IMG/VR virus record: IMGVR_UViG_3300011114_000059
Location: 1 to 24,908 of that record
From: a virus
Reading direction: 5' to 3' (one strand)
Length of the DNA: 24,908 nucleotides
Position numbers and translations under genes: made by a program. The notes beneath the pieces are model-generated. The model was not told where the DNA came from. It ran no database searches and saw only the letters and a list, made by a program, of their open reading frames with translations. This document shows, one piece after another, positions 13,786-24,908 of this stretch (position 1 is the stretch's first letter; each line of letters opens with the position of its first letter).

Positions 13786-14685
13786 ATGTCAAATATTCAA
13801 TTTACTAACTTTGCTGCAACAACCCTAGCTTCAGGGATTAATAGTGTTGTTACTAGCCTGACTGTAGCTACTGGCACAGGAGCACTGTTTCCAACTCTAG
13901 CTGGAGCACAATACTTTTATTGTGTTCTGGCTGATGCTGCTACAGGCGTTACTAGAGAAGTTATAAAAGTAACTGCAAGATCTACAGATACTTTTACTAT
14001 TACTAGGGCTCAAGATGGCACTACTGGGCAGACGTATATAACTGGAGACAAGGTTGAGCTTCGTCTTACTTCTGCTGGTATAGCTACTCTAGCAACTACA
14101 GAAACAGCCCAGACCTTTGCTGGTGTTCAGACGTTTTCCTCAGCTCCTGTATTGTCAGCCCCACTAGCAGCTTCTGGTGGTGGAACTGGTGTTGCTAATA
14201 ATGCAGCAAGCACCATTACCATGTCGGGTAGCTTTGCCAGCACTTTTGTAGTTACTGGTGCGTTCTCGTATACCCTGCCAGCCGCTTCAGATACCCTGGT
14301 CAACCTTGGGTCAACGCAGACCCTGACAGCCAAAACGCTGACGAATCCGACCGTAACAAATTACGTCGAATCCGTGGTCGCCATCGGAACGGTAACGAGT
14401 TCCTCTACCTTGTCGCTGACATCCGGCACAGTTCAGACCGCAACCTTGACCGCATCCACGGCTTGCACGTTTACCATGCCGACTGCTACTGCTGGCAAAT
14501 CCTTTGTGCTTTTGCTTAAGCAAGCGGCGGCTACCGGAAACGGAACGGCAACATTTACCGGCGTAAAATTTGGAACTGCTGGTGCGCCGACGATTACCGC
14601 AACCGCGGGCAAGATGGATATCTTGACCTTTATCGCTGATGGCACAAACTGGTATGGCTCAATCGCGCAAGGTTATACGCCGTAA
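13786..14685 (+). CDS. tail fibre protein, probably mosaic
   Basis: This 299-residue protein begins with a virion-attachment-like part (FTNFAATTLASGINSVVTSL to TRAQDGTTGQTYITGDKVEL), then a GGGTGVANNAASTI linker typical of tail fibres, and ends with a beta-rich distal domain closing in FIADGTNWYGSIAQGYTP. Base composition and codon choice shift near 14230-14290: upstream codons are A/T-ending, downstream ones (CCG, GCG, ACG, TCC) are G/C-ending. The shift falls at the linker, so the distal half was likely swapped by recombination. The stop overlaps the next start. Confidence 0.75.
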   Translation: MSNIQFTNFAATTLASGINSVVTSLTVATGTGALFPTLAGAQYFYCVLADAATGVTREVIKVTARSTDTFTITRAQDGTTGQTYITGDKVELRLTSAGIATLATTETAQTFAGVQTFSSAPVLSAPLAASGGGTGVANNAASTITMSGSFASTFVVTGAFSYTLPAASDTLVNLGSTQTLTAKTLTNPTVTNYVESVVAIGTVTSSSTLSLTSGTVQTATLTASTACTFTMPTATAGKSFVLLLKQAAATGNGTATFTGVKFGTAGAPTITATAGKMDILTFIADGTNWYGSIAQGYTP

Positions 14686-15512
14686 TGTTTGCCGCTAAGA
14701 ATATGTTTTTGACTAGCCAAGTCCCTGCGCCTTCCGCAGTTAATTACCTTGTCGTAGCGGGTGGCGGCGGCGGGTCTAGTTACGGCGGTGGTGGCGGTGC
14801 TGGCGGTTTTAGAACAGCGGCGTCATTGGCTGTTTCCGGTGGAACTTCGTATACAGTAACTATCGGTGCCGGTGGTAACGTGGACGGCAACGGATCAAAC
14901 TCCGTATTTTCGTCCATAACATCTACAGGCGGCGGTAAAGGCGGCAACACAGGCGCTGCGGCAGGGAATGGTGGTTCGGGTGGCGGCGCTGGTGGAACTG
15001 GCAGTTCTATTGGAACGGGAACAGTTGGGCAGGGAAATAATGGCGGCGCAGAATATACCAGCGGATTTGACAGGGGGTTTGGCGGTGGTGGTGGAGCTAC
15101 CGCTGTCGGCGTTACGGCTACGAACGGTAACGGCGCTAACGGCGGTGCTGGCACATCCAACTCGTATTCCGGCTCCGCTGTCACATATGCTGGCGGTGGA
15201 GGCGGCGGGTTTGATGGTCGTGGCGCGGGAACAACTGGCGGGACAGGCGGTTCGGGTGGCGGCGGCAATGGAACCGCGTCAGGAACCGCAACAGCAGGGA
15301 CTGTAAACAGGGGCGGTGGTGGTGGTGGCGCAGGGTATACAGCAGGGTATGGAACTGCTGGAACTGGCGGTTCAGGCATAGTAATAATTTCTTATGCGTC
15401 AACTAGCGGCGATTTACTGTCCATTGGCGGCGGGTTGACGTATACAAAAACGGCTTCTGGTGGCAACACTATATACACATTCACAGCCGGAACCGGCAGT
15501 ATTAATTGGTAA
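14685..15512 (+). CDS. glycine-rich tail adhesin-like protein
   Basis: This 275-residue protein contains many runs of Gly with spacer residues. It opens at about residue 20 with NYLVVAGGGGGSS and closes with GTGGSGIVIISYA, then a small beta domain (GGGLTYTKTASGGNTIYTFT). Such glycine-rich domains form polyglycine-II bundles in phage receptor-binding adhesins, and their variable loops select the receptor. That role here is inference. The start is coupled to the fibre gene (TAATG at 14683-14687). Composition is GC-rich relative to neighbours. A long proline-rich antisense reading frame is only its shadow. Confidence 0.72.
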   Translation: MFAAKNMFLTSQVPAPSAVNYLVVAGGGGGSSYGGGGGAGGFRTAASLAVSGGTSYTVTIGAGGNVDGNGSNSVFSSITSTGGGKGGNTGAAAGNGGSGGGAGGTGSSIGTGTVGQGNNGGAEYTSGFDRGFGGGGGATAVGVTATNGNGANGGAGTSNSYSGSAVTYAGGGGGGFDGRGAGTTGGTGGSGGGGNGTASGTATAGTVNRGGGGGGAGYTAGYGTAGTGGSGIVIISYASTSGDLLSIGGGLTYTKTASGGNTIYTFTAGTGSINW

Positions 15513-17061: not shown

Positions 17062-17804
17062 TGCCTACGTCAACATACTCTATTACTAGAGACCAGATAA
17101 TAATCACAGCTCTACGTAAGTTAGGGACTGTTGAACCTGCTGACACTACGTCTACCATTGATGCCAACATAGTTACTAACTGTGCTCAGGCTCTTAACCT
17201 TATGGTTAAGCAGTGGATGACTGAAGGCATTAAGCTTTGGACAGTTACTGACTACACTCTTACTTTGGTAGCTAGTCAAACCTCTTACATCATTGGCCCC
17301 AGTGGGCCCGACTTAGTGGCTGATAAACCTTTACGTCTTATTCAAGGACTACTTAGGAACATATCAGTAACGTCCTATATAGACACTCCTTTACAAATTC
17401 TTAGTAAGCAAGAGTACACAACCCTTGGTTCCAAGTTCTCTACAGGTATAGCCAACTCTGTGTACTTAAACCCAGGTCTTACGTCTGCTACGGTTAAGTT
17501 CTTCCTGACTCCAGATACTTCTACGGCAACTAACTATCAAGCCATTCTGACCTGCCAGAGACCTATCTATGACATATCACTCTCTAGTGATGTGCCTGAC
17601 TTTCCTAACGAGTGGATGCAAGCCTTGGTCTGGGGGTTGGCAGACCAGCTTAGTCTGGAATACGGATTGCCTGTTAACCACCGGCAAGAGGTTCTGCTGA
17701 GAGCTGAAAAATACAAGATGCAGCTAATGGATTGGGACGTAGAATATGAAAGTACCTTTTTTCAGCCTGACTCCCGTAACTTCACTCCTAGCTATGGTAT
17801 GTAA
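17061..17804 (+). CDS. head-tail adaptor (P22 gp4-like)
   Basis: This 247-residue protein should bind under the portal and seal the DNA-filled head, beginning the short tail. The N-terminal pattern TRDQIIITALRKLGTVEP followed by CAQALNLMVKQWMTEGIKLW is diagnostic of P22 gp4-type tail accessory factors, and the C-terminal FPNEWMQALVWGLADQLSLEYG agrees. Length is normal. It is followed after five bases by the gp10-like gene, as in P22. No hydrolase residues are obvious. Confidence 0.82.
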   Translation: MPTSTYSITRDQIIITALRKLGTVEPADTTSTIDANIVTNCAQALNLMVKQWMTEGIKLWTVTDYTLTLVASQTSYIIGPSGPDLVADKPLRLIQGLLRNISVTSYIDTPLQILSKQEYTTLGSKFSTGIANSVYLNPGLTSATVKFFLTPDTSTATNYQAILTCQRPIYDISLSSDVPDFPNEWMQALVWGLADQLSLEYGLPVNHRQEVLLRAEKYKMQLMDWDVEYESTFFQPDSRNFTPSYGM

Positions 17805-17809
17805 CTACT

Positions 17810-19486
17810 ATGCCTATAGTACGTATACCACTTACTCAGGTAATACAATCTAGAACAGCCTCTACTAGTAAAGATTCTAGGGGTGTTAATTGCTACTTTG
17901 AGTCTAGGGGTGAGAACTCTAAGGACAACATCAAGCGTCCTGGGCTACTTAACACGGTAGTTACCCCAGCTATGGCTGCTGGTCAAGCCCAAGGTCTTTA
18001 CAAGCGTGACAATGGAGACCTGTGGGTTGTTATTAATAACACCGTTACAGTAGTAGATTCAGCACTAGCTACCTCCTCAGGAGGTACTTTGTCAGGGACT
18101 GTTCAGAACGTCTACTTTGCTGAGTCTGGTAATGATGCCTATCTATTCATGCACAATGGCTCTAGTGGCTATACCTCTACGGGTAGTGCTGCTTTTGTAG
18201 TAATTGCTCCAGGTAAGCTGTATGAAGCTCTGGTAACGACTGGTGGAAGTGGCTACGTTACCCCTACTTGCACCTTTAGCGCAGCTCCTGGTAGCGGTGT
18301 AACAGCTACAGGCAACGTTATTATCTCTGGTGGGGTAGTGATAGCCATAGATATAACTGACTACGGTTCTGGGTATGTAACAGCCCCAACCTGTACTATT
18401 AACCCGGTAGGTGGTGGTTCAGGTGCTACTGTCTCAGTAACCCTTAATGGGTTCCCTTCAGGAGCAGGGCTCTTGGCTACAGGCGCTGTGTATCTAGACG
18501 GATACACTGTAGTAGCTACTAAGGCTGGTCAGATATTTAACAGTGACCCAGAAGATCCTACCTTGTGGAATCCTTTAAACACGATAGCTGTAGAGTCTGA
18601 TCCTGATCCTCTAATAGGCATTGTTAAGCACTTTAACTACATAGTTGCTTTTGGAGAGTGGTCTACAGAGTTTTTTTACAACGCTGCTAATGCTACTGGT
18701 AGTCCTTTTCTTAGGCAGGATAGCTATAAGAATGAAATAGGCTGTGCCAATGGAGCTAGTGTTGTCCAGTATCAACAAGGTGTAATGTATGTAGGTAAGT
18801 CAAAGACACGGGGTAAGTCTGTGTATGTTCTGGATGGGTTTAGTCCTAAGCCAGTATCTACTCCCTACATTGAGACCTACCTTAACGCAGACACCAACTC
18901 AAATATCCAGTCTTTTGCTTTTAGGATAGCTGGGCACACTTTTTATGTAATGACGCTAGTAGACCTAGATTTAACCTTTGTCTACGACATAGATGTAAAC
19001 CTATGGTACCAGTGGACTAGTTACTCTAGTAGTGCTGAACATGCCTTTAGGGTATGGACTGCTACAGACTTCCTTGGAGCTACGTACGGTATAGATACCA
19101 GCAACGGCTTGTTATACAAGATAGACACTGGTACTTATAGTGATAATGGGGCTAATATCTATTGGCGTATTGTTACTAATAACTTGGATGCTGGAACCAG
19201 ACACAGGAAGTTCTGGGAATCAGGAGAGATTATTGGAGACAAAGTTAATGCTACTATGTACATTAACTTTAGTAACAATGATTACGTTAGTTTTTCTGCT
19301 ACAAGAACAGTCAATCTAAATAGTACTAGAAGCATTATTAGGCAACTAGGACAAGACAGATATAGGTCATATCAGTTTCTTGTAACTGACAATGTGCCTC
19401 TTAGGTTATCTGCTTTTGAGATGTCTGTACAAGGTGGTGAGATGGCTGCTGACCCTGAACTACAAGCTATATCGCAACAGAAATAA
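17810..19486 (+). CDS. tail hub / DNA stabilisation protein (P22 gp10-like) with inserted repeat domain
   Basis: This 558-residue protein has the start IQSRTASTSKDSRGVNCYFE, then KRPGLLNT and GLYKRDNGDLWVVINNTV, and later PLIGIVKHFNYIVAFGEWST and EFFYNAANATGSPFLRQ. These are typical of P22 gp10-like hub proteins, which extend the tail below gp4 and bind the fibres or needle. Residues about 139-212 form an extra module of two similar units, each with G-S-G-Y (147-149 and 187-189) followed by a PTCT strand and a GSG turn. It probably adds a surface domain. Palindrome copies 6 and 7 lie in this gene. Confidence 0.82.
   Translation: MPIVRIPLTQVIQSRTASTSKDSRGVNCYFESRGENSKDNIKRPGLLNTVVTPAMAAGQAQGLYKRDNGDLWVVINNTVTVVDSALATSSGGTLSGTVQNVYFAESGNDAYLFMHNGSSGYTSTGSAAFVVIAPGKLYEALVTTGGSGYVTPTCTFSAAPGSGVTATGNVIISGGVVIAIDITDYGSGYVTAPTCTINPVGGGSGATVSVTLNGFPSGAGLLATGAVYLDGYTVVATKAGQIFNSDPEDPTLWNPLNTIAVESDPDPLIGIVKHFNYIVAFGEWSTEFFYNAANATGSPFLRQDSYKNEIGCANGASVVQYQQGVMYVGKSKTRGKSVYVLDGFSPKPVSTPYIETYLNADTNSNIQSFAFRIAGHTFYVMTLVDLDLTFVYDIDVNLWYQWTSYSSSAEHAFRVWTATDFLGATYGIDTSNGLLYKIDTGTYSDNGANIYWRIVTNNLDAGTRHRKFWESGEIIGDKVNATMYINFSNNDYVSFSATRTVNLNSTRSIIRQLGQDRYRSYQFLVTDNVPLRLSAFEMSVQGGEMAADPELQAISQQK
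18029..18040. repeat. palindrome copy 6, GTTATTAATAAC
   Basis: Exact copy inside the tail hub gene, read as Val-Ile-Asn-Asn. Confidence 0.6.
19172..19183. repeat. palindrome copy 7, GTTACTAATAAC
   Basis: Exact copy inside the tail hub gene, read as Val-Thr-Asn-Asn. Confidence 0.6.
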
Positions 19487-19537
19487 TTGTAATTAAAAGT
19501 CTTACTATTAGGGTTTAGGTAGTACAGGAGAAACAAT

Positions 19538-21373
19538 ATGGCTAAAACACTACAACAAACGCTTGCTGATTACCAAGCGAACGCCTTGCAAAATAGAGCG
19601 CGTTGGGACGCTGGCGAACGTGACGGATTGCCATTGCCCGAAAATTCCTCAGATTACTCGGATGGGATTCCGTTATTTGACAACGCATATGCAAAAAACC
19701 GTTGGTTGCATGACAACGGTTTTGTTGTTTTAGACAAGAACGATATAGCAAATATGGCAAACCCGCGTTTTAGCAACATGGCGGGGAGACCAGTAATTGA
19801 CCAGATGGTTGCGCTGTATGGGCCAAAAGCAAGAAACTGGACAGTTACACCTGACGGTTCCGGTGGTTTAATATTTGATACCGGAACTGGACAAAACATA
19901 GATACTCTTGCCACTGGTACTTATGACCTTGCCGCAGGAACGGTTGGCGGCAACAATGGTGGTGGATTTTTTAATAACTTAGCAGGAATGGTCACTGACA
20001 CAGGCCTTCCTTTTCTAGCAAGTATGGCAGCAGGAGGTGCTGGTGGAGCCCTAACAGCCGGTGGTGCTGCACTAAGCAACCTTGGCGGTATGACTGGAAA
20101 TGACGCTCTAAAGTATGGGGGCATGTTAGTAGGTGGTGCAAGTAAATTAGGTGGCTTTGGTGGCAGTGTGGGTGGTGATGGAGCATTTTTAGGTGGCTAT
20201 GAAGACATGGCTCCAGTGCCTACTAATGTAGCTAGTAATGTAGTAGACCCTACTTATGGTGTAAATTTAAGACCAGATCCTTACCAAGGTTTAGGTTACT
20301 CACAAGCTGATATTGAAGCTTTAAAAAATGGTACGTACTCAGGCCCCGAACAGGCAGGAGGAGGAGGAACACCAGTTTTTCCTAGTACACAAGCAGTAGA
20401 CTATGGAATGACTCCTACTGGTACTCCAGCAGGTGGACTTACTCCTACGGGAGGTGGTCTAGGACTTACGCAAACAGCAGCAGGTGGGGCCGCTATTACT
20501 GGTGGTCTAGCAGGGGCTGCTGGAAGTACGGCAGTACCTGATACTGTGGCAGGTGAAGCAGGTGCTTCTATTGGAGGAATCACTGGTGCTGGTACTAGTG
20601 TGTTTGATACGTTCCTAGACAAACTCAGTAATAACCCAGTACAGACTGCCATTAAAGCTGCTCAGGTTGTGTCAGGCATAGCGTCTGGTGTGAATGCTAT
20701 GAATGCGCCTATTAGCCCTACTGACGCTCAGAAGATGGCTGATCCGTTTGCTTCTTCCAGACAGCAATACATAGACAAGCTTAATGCTCTAATGGCTAAC
20801 CCATCTCTTGCTATGTCTCAGCCTGGGTATCAGTTTGCTTTGCAACAGGGTATGCAAGGACTCAATAGGAACCTCTCAAAGAGTGGCATGGGTACCTCTA
20901 CTCCTGGTTTTCCTGGAACTCCTGCTTCTGGTGCTGCTGGTATTGCTCAACAAAAATATGGGCAAAATTTTGCTCTTAAGTCTTATGATGACTATGTTAA
21001 CCAACTATCAGCATTATCTGGAGCTACTCAAAGACCTTCTGCTGGTTCTGATGCTTTTATAACTGCTCAGAAAGCAGCATCTGATGCAGCTAACTCTGGT
21101 TGGAAATCTGTGGCCCAAGCTAGTGGAGGACTACTTGATTTGTTTGGTAGTAAGTCTCCACAGACTGGTTCTACAGTAACTGCACCTCCTGTAGGTGGGG
21201 GTGCTGCTGCTGGTGGAAACTTTAGCCCCGCCAGTTGGAACACTGCCCCCAATTGGTATTTAGGGGGGCCTTCTACAACAGTAGATGGTAATACAACCAT
21301 ACCTGACTATACTAATTACGGTGATCCTGGTGGGGGTATTAACTATAATGACTACAATATGTTTGGGCCATAG
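19538..21373 (+). CDS. internal virion (ejection) protein, Gly/Ala-rich
   Basis: This 611-residue protein likely leaves the particle with the DNA. Residues 1-145 are charged and mixed. From about 150 on it is Gly/Ala-rich and weakly hydrophobic (LPFLASMAAGGAGGALTAGG; later AAITGGLAGAAGS), as in phage proteins that cross the envelope. A conserved C-terminal unit includes ADPFASSRQQYIDKLNALMA, then AMSQPGYQFALQQGMQGLNR and a KYGQNFALKSYDDYVNQLSA helix, found in many podovirus internal proteins. Base and codon use change near 19970-19990: the first 145 codons use GCG, TTG and CCG, later ones GCT, CTA and CCT. This suggests a replaced N-terminus. CAGGAGAAACAATATG gives a strong start. Confidence 0.72.
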   Translation: MAKTLQQTLADYQANALQNRARWDAGERDGLPLPENSSDYSDGIPLFDNAYAKNRWLHDNGFVVLDKNDIANMANPRFSNMAGRPVIDQMVALYGPKARNWTVTPDGSGGLIFDTGTGQNIDTLATGTYDLAAGTVGGNNGGGFFNNLAGMVTDTGLPFLASMAAGGAGGALTAGGAALSNLGGMTGNDALKYGGMLVGGASKLGGFGGSVGGDGAFLGGYEDMAPVPTNVASNVVDPTYGVNLRPDPYQGLGYSQADIEALKNGTYSGPEQAGGGGTPVFPSTQAVDYGMTPTGTPAGGLTPTGGGLGLTQTAAGGAAITGGLAGAAGSTAVPDTVAGEAGASIGGITGAGTSVFDTFLDKLSNNPVQTAIKAAQVVSGIASGVNAMNAPISPTDAQKMADPFASSRQQYIDKLNALMANPSLAMSQPGYQFALQQGMQGLNRNLSKSGMGTSTPGFPGTPASGAAGIAQQKYGQNFALKSYDDYVNQLSALSGATQRPSAGSDAFITAQKAASDAANSGWKSVAQASGGLLDLFGSKSPQTGSTVTAPPVGGGAAAGGNFSPASWNTAPNWYLGGPSTTVDGNTTIPDYTNYGDPGGGINYNDYNMFGP

Positions 21374-21425
21374 GCACTAATAGTTTAATTAAATATAGTG
21401 AACTGGTAATAACTAGGAAAATATT

Positions 21426-22640
21426 ATGCCATTCTTATTGACAGATGCTGACGCAGGGCAAGAGGCCATGATTAACATGCGTCTTAGGCCGCTTCAAGCG
21501 CAGGCTATAGAGGAACGCATCCCTCTTGAAACTCAAAAGATGCAACAGAGTCTTGCAACTGAAAAGACTAACCAAGAGACTGCTGTTTTAAAAATGCAGG
21601 CACTGGTTGAAGCTCAAGCAGATGACAGGGAAGCTAAAGAGGTTATAAATAATCTTGCTAAAGACCCTAGCTTTACTTCTTTATCTTTGGCTGACCAGCA
21701 ACAAAGAATAGGTACAGCACTCACTAGTAAAGGAAAATTTAGTATTGGTGAGAAGTTTATTAAAGACTCACAACAGAGCAGGATGACTGACGCTAACATT
21801 AAAAAGACTGGACGTGAAATAGAACAGTTTCATCTTGAACAAATTAACACTTATCTTTCAGGCATAAATACTGCTGGAACTCCTGATGAACAAGCAGCTT
21901 CTTTAGACACAGTGTTAATGGGGGTTAAAGCAGATGGGCTAATGACTCCCCAACAACAACAAACCTTTGAAAATAATGCTAGGGCTGCTTATGCTTCAGG
22001 CAATCTTCCACAGTGGAAAAGAGAAGCCCAAGCAACTTATGATTCTATAGCCAGTAAAAAACAAAAAGAAGTGGTGGCTCGTAATATAGCTGAAGAACTT
22101 CGTAAAGAACTTAAAGCTGATGAAGATCTTAAACAACGTCGTTATGAAGAGGACAGAAAAGAAGCTCGTGCTAGAACGGCTGAAGAATCAAGAGATGAGC
22201 GTCAAGAACGTAGGATAGAAGCAAAAGATGCTAAATTAGAAAAAGAACAAGCATTTAAAGAATACAATGACATTGCAACAAGAATAATCCCTAGACTTAA
22301 CGACCAAATACGAAACGCTAGAAGAAATGCAAGCGAGGCTCCTAAAGATAGTCGTAGGTCATTTGAGAATGAAGTTGCTACGTTAGAAGAAGCTCGTAAA
22401 GATGAATACAGAAAAGCTAATAGCCTTAGAGCTCAACTAAAGCTTCCTCTTTTACCTGTTCCTAAAGATGGCCCACCTGCTTCTGGGTCTGGTGCTGCTG
22501 AGACTAAGCCTAAAGTAGTACGTCCTACTCCAATACGTCCTGCTGATGTGCCTAATGATTGGAAAATATGGCAAGATGAAGTAAGTGGAGATAGAGCTTG
22601 GGTAAGTCCAGATGGTAAAAAATTTAAAGAGATAAAATAA
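21426..22640 (+). CDS. internal virion protein, coiled-coil-rich
   Basis: This 404-residue helical protein sits between two other probable ejection proteins. The N-terminal half starts MPFLLTDADAGQEAMINMRL and has helices rich in Gln/Glu/Lys. Residues about 215-325 form a strongly charged coiled coil (RRYEEDRKEARARTAEESRD). A Pro-rich linker (PVPKDGPPASGSGAAETKPK) leads to a C-terminal motif NDWKIWQDEVSGDRAWVSPD. No enzyme motif was found. The order hydrophobic/coiled-coil/giant protein is typical of podovirus ejection proteins. Its stop overlaps the start of the next gene (TAATG). Confidence 0.68.
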   Translation: MPFLLTDADAGQEAMINMRLRPLQAQAIEERIPLETQKMQQSLATEKTNQETAVLKMQALVEAQADDREAKEVINNLAKDPSFTSLSLADQQQRIGTALTSKGKFSIGEKFIKDSQQSRMTDANIKKTGREIEQFHLEQINTYLSGINTAGTPDEQAASLDTVLMGVKADGLMTPQQQQTFENNARAAYASGNLPQWKREAQATYDSIASKKQKEVVARNIAEELRKELKADEDLKQRRYEEDRKEARARTAEESRDERQERRIEAKDAKLEKEQAFKEYNDIATRIIPRLNDQIRNARRNASEAPKDSRRSFENEVATLEEARKDEYRKANSLRAQLKLPLLPVPKDGPPASGSGAAETKPKVVRPTPIRPADVPNDWKIWQDEVSGDRAWVSPDGKKFKEIK

Positions 22641-24908
22641 TGGCCTTTGACCTCTCTACTGCTAAGCCTATTGATGAATCTAGTCCTACTCGCCCTAGTA
22701 CCACTAGGGGGTTTAATCTATCTACTGCTCGTCCTATAGACGACTCAGATGTTATTAGTAACGCAGATGAAGGAGCTTTAGCTGCTGGCACTAGGGGTGC
22801 TGTTGAAGCTGTAGTTCCTGGGTTTGCTGGTCTTGCTGGATTTGGTGCTGGTATGAAGGCTGCTGCTCCAACGGCTGCTAGAGCCGCTGCTGCTACTCCA
22901 GGCCCTGCTATAGCTAAAGGTCTTGTTGGTGGTGCTGTAGCCCTTACAGGAGGCTTTGCTGGAGCCTTTGGAGCCTCCAGTGGTGCTGCTTGGGTACAGA
23001 ATAAACTGTACGCCATAGTAGATCCAGAGGGGTATAAAAACAGCCAGACTGCTAAAGAACAACATCCTACAGCTAGTGCCGTAGGGAATGTGGTTGGTGG
23101 GTTAGCTGGTATGAGTCCTAAGACTATTCCTGAAGTAGCTGGTAAATTCTTTACTAAACCTATAGTCCAACGTAGCGTTAGTGCTGGTTTGACTGGTACT
23201 TTGGATGTAGGACAGCAAGCTGCCACAGAAGATAGTATTGATTGGGCACGGGCTGGTGCTGCTGCGGCGGGTGGTTTTGCAGCCCCTGGGTTTAATCCTG
23301 CTGGTAGAGCTGCTTATGATGTTGGAGGAAAGCTTGTCCCAGGTAGAACTGCACCTACGCTTGAAGGCACTAGACCTCCTACAGATTCTACTGAGGCAGG
23401 CATTAAGAAGAACGAAGACTCTCTAATAAGGGAGTTTGAGCTTGGTACTAATCCAAATAAGCAGCTGGATCAAGCTGCTTTTATGGACACAAAGACCGGG
23501 GAGTACATTAAACAAGGAGCTCGTCACGATGAGCTTCTTAAGAAGAACCCTAATCTAGTTGCTGGATTCCTCCTTAAAGACGGTACTTTTGTTACCCGTA
23601 AAGAAGCAGCAATCATTGCCAAGGATCAACACGCTGACAAACTGGTAGAGGAAATAGATCCTAAACAAGGTTTGCGTTCTAGTAACTTTGGCCCTGAGCG
23701 TATGGATGCTCTTAAGACCAAAGACTTTGCTACGTTTGATTCTATGCAACCAGGAGAATCTGTTACTTTGTATCGTGGCGAAACTAAAGAAAATGAATCA
23801 GGTGGACAGTGGTGGACTACTGACCCAAATAAAGCTGCAAAGTATGGAAAAGTAGAACAAGTAACTCTTCCTTCAGAAACAATAGGCAAACATGCTGCAC
23901 AAGGGCATGGCGGCCCTAATGAATTTGTTTTCCCTACTGAAGGTAAAAGACCTGCTGATCTAGTTAAATTGGCTAAGTCTGCTGTTCAAAAAGAAGACGA
24001 TTTATTTTTGAAGTATGAAAAAATAAAACAGCAACACGAGGATGCTTTAGCTTCTCCAGACAAATACTCTAAAGAACAAGTAGAGGCTTTAAACCAACAA
24101 AGGTTGTCTCTAAGAGATGAGTTGTTGGCTGCAAAATTAGCTACTATAGAAGACCCTGTTCTTCGCAAGATGGCTCTTGAAGCAAGTGCTGATGATCCTT
24201 TTTTAAATAGCAACAACATATCAAATGTTGGAGATTTAGTTCGTCATTTAAAAGGTAAGTTTGGGGATAACCACTACATCTCACAAATGTTAGATGTATT
24301 AAATGTAGACCCATATACAAACACATTTGTTTTATCAGTAGATGAGTTTAAACGTCAGGCACAAAAGTATGGGTTTAACCCAAATACTCCTGCGTTTTGG
24401 AATGACCAAGGAATCTTTATTGCGGAGAGTAGAGGTACTAACGCTATAGTAGTTGCACATGAAATAGGACATGCAGCACTATTTTCTAAAATAGAACAGA
24501 TACAAGCACTGCCAGCAAATCATCCTGATGCTATACGGCTTAAGAAGTTAGTAAGTAATATTGAAAACATTCTTGCTGATGTCAAAAGTAAAGTTGATTT
24601 AAACAAGCTATCTTTAAGTGGTAAAGCCAAACTAGATTACGCACTAAGCGATGTACACGAATTTATTAGTGATGGGTTATTTCAGCCCACTGTAATTCAA
24701 GAGTTGATGGCTATAGATAGGGCAAACCCTAATCTTGGATTTATAGACAAGATACTTAAAGCTGTCAGTGATTTCTTTGGGATGAACTCTAAGCAGTACA
24801 CTGCTTTCCACGATCTTATTGCGTCTGTATCCAAGCTGTCTGAAGTAGACATGCCTAAAAATATGCAGGCAGTAGATCCAAACTCTACTGCACCTAGACC
24901 CAGTTCTA
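22640..24908 (+). CDS. partial giant ejected protein with ART-like and HEIGH zinc-protease segments
   Basis: Open from the ATG at 22640 (overlapping the previous TAA) to the window edge; 756 codons are seen and the C-terminus is missing. Residues 3-14 and 25-36 are near repeats (FDLSTAKPIDES, FNLSTARPIDDS). Residues about 45-120 are Ala/Gly-rich and hydrophobic, typical of envelope-crossing internal proteins. Residues 375-431 resemble an ADP-ribosyltransferase core: YRG (R379), WWTTDPNKAAKYG (391-403) and NEFVFP (E428). Residues 607-611 are HEIGH, a zinc-metalloprotease motif, with HEF (E674) about 60 residues later as a possible third ligand. I infer a multi-domain protein ejected into the host. 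Either enzyme could instead be inactive or act in virion maturation. Confidence 0.75.
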   Translation, partial: MAFDLSTAKPIDESSPTRPSTTRGFNLSTARPIDDSDVISNADEGALAAGTRGAVEAVVPGFAGLAGFGAGMKAAAPTAARAAAATPGPAIAKGLVGGAVALTGGFAGAFGASSGAAWVQNKLYAIVDPEGYKNSQTAKEQHPTASAVGNVVGGLAGMSPKTIPEVAGKFFTKPIVQRSVSAGLTGTLDVGQQAATEDSIDWARAGAAAAGGFAAPGFNPAGRAAYDVGGKLVPGRTAPTLEGTRPPTDSTEAGIKKNEDSLIREFELGTNPNKQLDQAAFMDTKTGEYIKQGARHDELLKKNPNLVAGFLLKDGTFVTRKEAAIIAKDQHADKLVEEIDPKQGLRSSNFGPERMDALKTKDFATFDSMQPGESVTLYRGETKENESGGQWWTTDPNKAAKYGKVEQVTLPSETIGKHAAQGHGGPNEFVFPTEGKRPADLVKLAKSAVQKEDDLFLKYEKIKQQHEDALASPDKYSKEQVEALNQQRLSLRDELLAAKLATIEDPVLRKMALEASADDPFLNSNNISNVGDLVRHLKGKFGDNHYISQMLDVLNVDPYTNTFVLSVDEFKRQAQKYGFNPNTPAFWNDQGIFIAESRGTNAIVVAHEIGHAALFSKIEQIQALPANHPDAIRLKKLVSNIENILADVKSKVDLNKLSLSGKAKLDYALSDVHEFISDGLFQPTVIQELMAIDRANPNLGFIDKILKAVSDFFGMNSKQYTAFHDLIASVSKLSEVDMPKNMQAVDPNSTAPRPSS
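22751..22762. repeat. palindrome copy 8, GTTATTAGTAAC
   Basis: Exact copy in the N-terminal part of the ejected-protein gene, read as Val-Ile-Ser-Asn. Confidence 0.6.

What the first reader, a model, noticed from the sequence alone, without database searches (positions are those of the whole stretch)
22640..24908. Ejected protein joining an ADP-ribosyltransferase-like segment to a zinc-protease motif
The incomplete last gene carries an YRG...WWTTDP...NEF arrangement (R379, T393/T394, E428) reminiscent of ART enzymes, and an HEIGH motif (607-611) with a later HEF. An Ala/Gly-rich stretch and the neighbouring internal-protein genes suggest that it enters the cell with the DNA. A protein that might both modify and cut host targets at the moment of entry would be an unusual early-takeover or counter-defence device.
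Basis: partly seen in the sequence, partly recalled or inferred. Interest (0 to 1): 0.7.

Follow-up and report, generated by a model that had tools for sequence, protein, structure and literature searches.

The report
Phage ejection protein with swappable cargo
The cut-off last gene encodes a protein that a short-tailed phage most likely ejects into the bacterium with its DNA; it carries a metal-protease-fold domain and a small ADP-ribosyltransferase-like domain, a combination described before in phages, but here the domains sit in a slot whose contents are swapped between related phages.

Summary
The motifs are real, at the stated residues, and conserved. The 756-aa frame 22640-24907 is cut by the window end. 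Contig L002 overlaps it with 3 mismatches in about 7.2 kb and continues the gene past 1242 aa; a complete orthologue has 1703 aa. Residues about 360-443 form a compact 80-aa module with R379, T393, T394 and E428 invariant in 18 of 18 sequences. Its AlphaFold model (pLDDT 87) matches mainly ADP-ribosyltransferase-fold proteins, with low scores. It is homologous to a domain of solved podophage ejection proteins and resembles N4 vRNAP's HExxH domain. ART plus zincin in one injected protein is the published 'polyvalent protein' theme (Iyer 2017), so the pairing is not new. What seems new: orthologues keep both ends constant and exchange the middle. HExxH is present in 42 of 46; the YRG module in few, and four close relatives lack exactly that cassette. 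Best reading: an ejectosome component with interchangeable cargo; the zincin probably acts on ejection proteins, the ART on the host. No activity, virion presence or counter-defence role is shown.

The parts
22640..24908 (+). incomplete gene of the ejection protein (756 aa seen; at least 1242 aa in L002; 1703 aa in the complete orthologue L011)
22640..23674 (+). constant N-terminal arm, residues 1-345, with Ala/Gly-rich stretch (residues 42-120 = 22763-22999)
   Evidence: about 55% identical in L011 and 72% in L009 (the L009 figure spans the zincin as well), 36% in the insert-less L055; A+G 56%
23717..23968 (+). YRG...WWTTD...EFVF module, ART-like, residues 360-443
   Evidence: 18-sequence alignment, AlphaFold2 pLDDT 86.9, structural matches dominated by ART-fold proteins, present/absent comparison
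23774..23776 (+). R379, invariant
23816..23821 (+). T393-T394, invariant
23921..23923 (+). E428, invariant
24143..24877 (+). zincin-like domain with its N-terminal helical part, residues 502-746 (core about 585-745)
   Evidence: alignment, model pLDDT 78.3, VIA-align Z 7.1-7.6 to gluzincins and to N4 vRNAP 2124-2359, profile hits to solved ejection proteins
24458..24472 (+). HEIGH, residues 607-611: predicted zinc ligands H607, H611 and general base E608
   Evidence: 39/39 invariant
24656..24664 (+). HEF, residues 673-675: E674 is the predicted third zinc ligand
   Evidence: E674 and F675 39/39 invariant
21426..22640 (+). 404-aa charged protein, probable partner ejection protein
   Evidence: same place beside the gene in L007, L009, L046, L049, L088; function inferred from position only
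19538..21373 (+). 611-aa Gly-rich protein, probable partner ejection protein
   Evidence: C-terminal part conserved in the same order in 10 of 12 other loci tested; function inferred from position only
17810..19486 (+). head closure Hc3 / phage stabilisation protein
   Evidence: phrog_578 E=4e-59; Pfam Phage_stabilise E=2e-8

Best explanation
The gene encodes a large ejection protein of a short-tailed phage, of the polyvalent type. Conserved N- and C-terminal arms (inferred) package it in the head and take part in DNA ejection. Between them lies a slot for interchangeable enzymatic modules. In this phage the slot holds (1) a compact ART-fold module with an R-T-E residue set, predicted to ADP-ribosylate a host molecule after entry, (2) a gluzincin-like HExxH...E domain shared with other podophage ejection proteins, most likely acting on the phage's own ejection proteins (processing or release of cargo) rather than on host targets, and, beyond the window end, (3) a segment that resembles a second ART by motif only. 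Shown here: gene anatomy, conservation, folds, family, module exchange. Inferred: packaging, ejection, catalysis, targets. Rough odds: ejected protein 0.9; zincin fold 0.95; ART fold 0.85; ART catalytically active 0.6; zincin acts on phage proteins 0.5, on host proteins 0.25, inactive scaffold 0.25.
For: Zincin: HExxH + E invariant in 39/39; profile hits to solved ejection proteins 9sfn_G E=4e-14, 8vb2_A (PhiM1 TEP gp48) E=6e-11 and 23sg_S E=4e-4, all keeping HExxH and the E; N4 vRNAP 2124-2359 aligned over 191 residues, Z 7.1, the region whose HExxH motif is published (PMC12633501). ART module: 18/18 invariant R, T, T, E; pLDDT 86.9; structural list of Tpt1/KptA, RhsP2, TreX, TreTu, PARPs, C3, ExoA domain III; the phiKT/PGT2 ejection protein carries it too. 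Ejection context: head-closure gene and two conserved genes upstream in relatives. Slot: 46 orthologues with a closed 5' end, C-terminal arm mostly over 50% identical, HExxH in 42, YRG in few; 78-aa presence/absence in L018/L087 against L069/L090/L095/L096; insert-less L055; zincin dS 0.10 against N-arm dS 0.80 for the same pair.
Against: The ART match is weak (VIA-align Z at most 4.1; Foldseek PDB E at least 0.5) and no Pfam, PHROG or NCBIfam model names the domain. The atomic active site could not be inspected. The constant C-terminal arm has no match to a solved ejection protein, so the ejection role of that arm rests on the zincin and on gene order. No proteomics. ARTs and zincins can be catalytically dead.
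Confidence: 0.7

Rival explanations
1. Both domains are effectors: the zincin cuts and the ART modifies host proteins at the moment of entry.
For: Iyer 2017 lets some polyvalent metallopeptidases act on host proteins; the zincin itself is exchanged between phages (dS 0.10 against 0.80), as effector cassettes are; three clusters of orthologues lack HExxH.
Against: An HExxH domain is present in 42 of 46 orthologues, in divergent sequence types, whatever else is in the slot, and is shared with podophage ejection proteins in which no effector role is described; nothing links the gene to any defence system.
Confidence: 0.25
2. The zincin fold is a structural part of the ejectosome and not an active protease; the ART fold is a binding module.
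For: In PhiM1 the matching region is part of the assembled ejectosome and is described as inserted into the hub domain; N4 vRNAP is packaged uncleaved (Iyer 2017).
Against: Zinc ligands and general base are invariant in 39/39 and R/T/T/E in 18/18 while the zincin otherwise diverges to about 20% identity, which is more than a scaffold needs.
Confidence: 0.2
3. The YRG module is not an ART; R, T and E are conserved for another reason in an unrelated small fold.
For: Low structural scores (Z at most 4.1) and only about 80 residues; no profile library names it.
Against: The ranked structural list is dominated by ART-superfamily proteins; the best viral matches include polyvalent proteins and an annotated ADP-ribosyltransferase; order of motifs as in ARTs.
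Confidence: 0.15

Closest known systems
Polyvalent proteins of phages (Iyer et al. 2017, PMC5512222)
   Same: Large multidomain protein next to virion genes, zincin-like metallopeptidase plus ART; other carriers of the same modules have curated polyvalent domains (SLT, ART-PolyVal, LPD23, LPD38 in L035; LPD38 in L003; LPD1 in L016).
   Different: The window protein itself matches no LPD or ART-PolyVal model; its ART module has R-T-E instead of the H-Y-D set described; the modules lie in a slot between two constant arms.
Tetrameric ejection protein gp48 of phage PhiM1 and other solved podophage ejection proteins (8vb2, 9sfn, 23sg)
   Same: Homologous zincin region with HExxH and E retained.
   Different: No similarity found over the C-terminal arm; the PhiM1 authors call that region endolysin/exotransglycosidase-like.
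Phage N4 virion RNA polymerase, domain C1 (2124-2375)
   Same: Similar fold over 191 residues (Z 7.1), HExxH motif, ejected giant protein.
   Different: No polymerase domain was recognised in the window protein or in the complete orthologue.
phiKT / PGT2 internal virion protein (SLT domain)
   Same: Carries the same YRG-type module (33-36% identity; HRG, WWTTD, DEVVF kept).
   Different: N-terminal transglycosylase; no HExxH motif.
Phage T4 Alt
   Same: Head-packaged, injected ART of the R-S-E class (from the literature).
   Different: No sequence relation was detected; the module here is about 80 aa and is one part of a larger protein.

Membership tests
Polyvalent proteins (phage type) | two or more unrelated enzymatic domains in one polypeptide | tested here: met
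   zincin plus ART-like module by alignments and models
Polyvalent proteins (phage type) | encoded beside virion morphogenesis genes | tested here: met
   head closure, adaptor, portal and terminase on the same strand; order kept in relatives
Polyvalent proteins (phage type) | recognised polyvalent domains (LPDs, ART-PolyVal) in the protein | tested here: not met
   none in the window protein or its orthologues; present only in more distant carriers of the same modules
Polyvalent proteins (phage type) | delivered into the host | not testable with these tools
   needs virion proteomics or a translocation assay
Zincin-like metallopeptidase, gluzincin-like | HExxH helix | tested here: met
   39/39; in helix 101-121 of the model
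Zincin-like metallopeptidase, gluzincin-like | downstream E as third ligand on a later helix | tested here: met
   E674 39/39, in helix 171-180 of the model
Zincin-like metallopeptidase, gluzincin-like | fold | tested here: met
   VIA-align Z 7.6 to lethal-factor-type zincins, 7.1 to N4 vRNAP, about 6 to PPEP peptidases; unrelated rows fall below 5; Foldseek alone weak, best E=0.027 to collagenase H
Zincin-like metallopeptidase, gluzincin-like | proteolytic activity | not testable with these tools
   bench assay needed
ADP-ribosyltransferase superfamily | ART fold | tested here: inconclusive
   the structural list is dominated by ART-fold proteins, but Z is at most 4.1 and Foldseek E at least 0.5
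ADP-ribosyltransferase superfamily | conserved catalytic triad (R-S/T-E or H-Y-E/D) | tested here: met
   R379, T393/T394, E428 invariant 18/18; their geometry was not inspected
ADP-ribosyltransferase superfamily | NAD binding and transfer | not testable with these tools
   bench assay needed
ART-PolyVal (PF18760, H-Y-D class) | Pfam profile match and H-Y-D residues | tested here: not met
   no match for the YRG module in 18 members; hhalign to the ART-PolyVal of L035 gives probability 2%; residues are R-T-E
Tetrameric ejection proteins (T7 gp16 / PhiM1 gp48 type) | homology over the hub and C-terminal core | tested here: inconclusive
   zincin region homologous; no sequence match for the C-terminal arm

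The most novel reading that the evidence does not exclude
A family of podovirus ejection proteins is a platform with a defined cargo slot: constant arms, and between them recombining modules (zincins, a GNAT-like segment by motif, ART-like cassettes). Phages of one lineage thus change what they deliver at entry, much as polymorphic toxins change their tips. The 80-aa YRG module is a new, unusually small ART family with an R-T-E active site.
Probability: 0.5. Interest if true: 0.65.

Novelty: new variant of a known kind. Interest (0 to 1): 0.45.

Why it matters
If right, it shows how a phage ejection machine can be re-armed by cassette exchange without touching its structural ends, and it gives natural with/without pairs (L018/L087 against L069/L090/L095/L096) for asking what an injected ART does. 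It also suggests that the 'endolysin/exotransglycosidase-like' domain of a published ejectosome (PhiM1 TEP 268-528) contains a metallopeptidase fold, which can be tested on deposited maps.

Tried and rejected
Chance motif: rejected by invariance and fold. Direct Pfam, PHROG and NCBIfam searches of the window protein: nothing significant. PDB profile search with the YRG module: nothing. Scan of cellular genome contigs with the YRG module: no relative found, which does not exclude diverged ones. C-terminal arm against PDB: no match. Nearest annotated record MW202796 shares terminase (48%) and head closure (40%) and part of the upstream 611-aa gene; no match to the window part of the ejection gene was seen in the stretch fetched. 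Literature searches for swappable slots in ejection proteins found no such report in the held library; absence there proves little. Searches were input errors.

Full report
Observation. The last frame of the window, 22640-24907 (+), is open for 756 residues and is cut by the window end. An HExxH is expected 0.012 times by composition.

Completing the gene. A viral contig, L002 (IMGVR_UViG_3300011115_000180), overlaps window 17749-24908 with three mismatches and runs on in the same frame to at least 1242 aa. L011 holds a complete orthologue of 1703 aa, followed by a gene with tail-fibre-like repeats.

Zincin. Homologues from viral contigs, down to about 20% identity, keep H607, E608, H611, Y667, E674 and F675 (15/15 for H607, E608, H611, Y667, E674, F675; 39/39 after adding orthologues). 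The profile finds three solved podophage ejection proteins, 9sfn_G (E=4e-14), 8vb2_A of phage PhiM1 (6e-11) and 23sg_S (4e-4), all with HExxH and the downstream glutamate. The AlphaFold2 model (pLDDT 78) aligns best with lethal-factor-type zincins (Z 7.6), with N4 virion RNA polymerase 2124-2359 (Z 7.1 over 191 residues) and with PPEP peptidases (Z about 6). Plain Foldseek alone was weak (best E=0.027, to collagenase H). N4's region is the one whose HExxH motif the N4 authors report (PMC12633501) and which Iyer et al. unified with lethal factor (PMC5512222).

ART-like module. The stretch 360-443 recurs at 52-74% identity in otherwise different phage proteins, and at 33-36% in the ejection protein of phiKT and PGT2. 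R379, T393, T394 and E428 are invariant in 18/18. The model is confident (pLDDT 86.9). The structural neighbours are mostly ART-superfamily proteins (Tpt1/KptA, Rhs toxins, PARPs, C3, exotoxin A domain III), with low Z, at most 4.1; Foldseek in PDB is not significant, and in viral models the named top hits include polyvalent proteins and an ADP-ribosyltransferase, the best E being 5e-3. I therefore call it ART-like, probably an ART, with an R-T-E set unlike the H-Y-D ARTs described for polyvalent proteins.

Context. Upstream lie a portal (PHROG 1216), an adaptor (PHROG 12985), head closure Hc3 (PHROG 578, E=4e-59) and two genes conserved in the same order in related contigs. This is the place of ejection-protein genes in short-tailed phages (general knowledge). 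Delivery itself is inferred.

The slot. A profile of the C-terminal arm found 71 loci. Among 46 with a closed 5' end (28 clusters of the upstream part), an HExxH precedes the C-terminal arm in 42 (25 clusters). It comes in at least two sequence types, the HEF type and a shorter HEAEH type that the zincin profile does not match. The YRG module is rare: the window/L002, L018 and L087 (same contig as L005), plus L007, whose C-terminal arm is not covered. L018 and L087 differ from L069, L090, L095 and L096 by exactly this cassette of about 78 aa at one site, where L074 has another insert. In L009 another segment replaces it. L055 has no insert between the arms. The zincins of the window and L009 differ at dS 0.10, while their N-terminal arms differ at dS 0.80: the module was exchanged recently. 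dN/dS is 0.17 for the YRG module (window against L003), 0.47 for the zincin and 0.20 for the second ART-like segment, so these are maintained protein sequences. None of the slot contents in 27 members matched Pfam at E 0.001.

Mechanism. The picture that fits best is an ejectosome component that carries cargo. The zincin is nearly a fixture of the family and is shared with podophage ejection proteins, so I favour action on phage ejection proteins (processing, release of cargo) over a host-directed protease; autoprocessing is also the first role Iyer et al. propose for such domains. The ART-like modules come and go and are the likelier host-directed part, as T4 Alt is (literature). None of these activities is shown here.

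Known or new. ART plus metallopeptidase in an injected phage protein is the published polyvalent-protein theme, and a cassette-like recombination is suggested there for one case. The slot between constant arms and the small R-T-E module are, as far as I could search, not described. I rate it a new variant of a known kind, interest 0.45.

Limits. No coordinates of the models could be inspected; no virion data exist; the second ART-like segment is known only from relatives and by motif; contigs are metagenomic, so single cases such as L055 may be assembly products.

Noticed in passing
PDB 8vb2_A (PhiM1 TEP gp48) residues 376-510; paper PMC11440229: The region published as endolysin/exotransglycosidase-like (268-528) matches the zincin profile at E=6e-11 with HEAAH and HEFIS kept; it may be a metallopeptidase fold.
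   Followed up: partly
L002:7459-7896, residues 857-1002 of the extended protein: Second ART-like segment (VHYT...GTYYFT...NNGYDGVRF...DDFLIFN), 92% identical in L011 although the zincin before it differs; not confirmed by profile comparison.
   Followed up: partly
L081 and L086, middle region: Orthologues without HExxH carry a GNAT-like segment (RRKGVATALYDA) and, in L081, another ART-like YHGT segment; by motif only.
   Followed up: no
L006:4159-12201: A 2681+ aa protein with the YRG module, an inorganic pyrophosphatase domain (InPase, E=1e-47), a NADAR-like segment and a zincin-like HEVGVHH stretch; the last two by eye only.
   Followed up: no
L035:553-7731: One protein with SLT, two HExxH motifs, ART-PolyVal, LPD23 and LPD38: a clear polyvalent ejection protein sharing the window's zincin.
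   Followed up: partly
window 14685-15512: Extremely Gly-rich 275-aa protein in the tail region with a long antisense frame (14780-15379); probably a tail-fibre-type protein.
   Followed up: no
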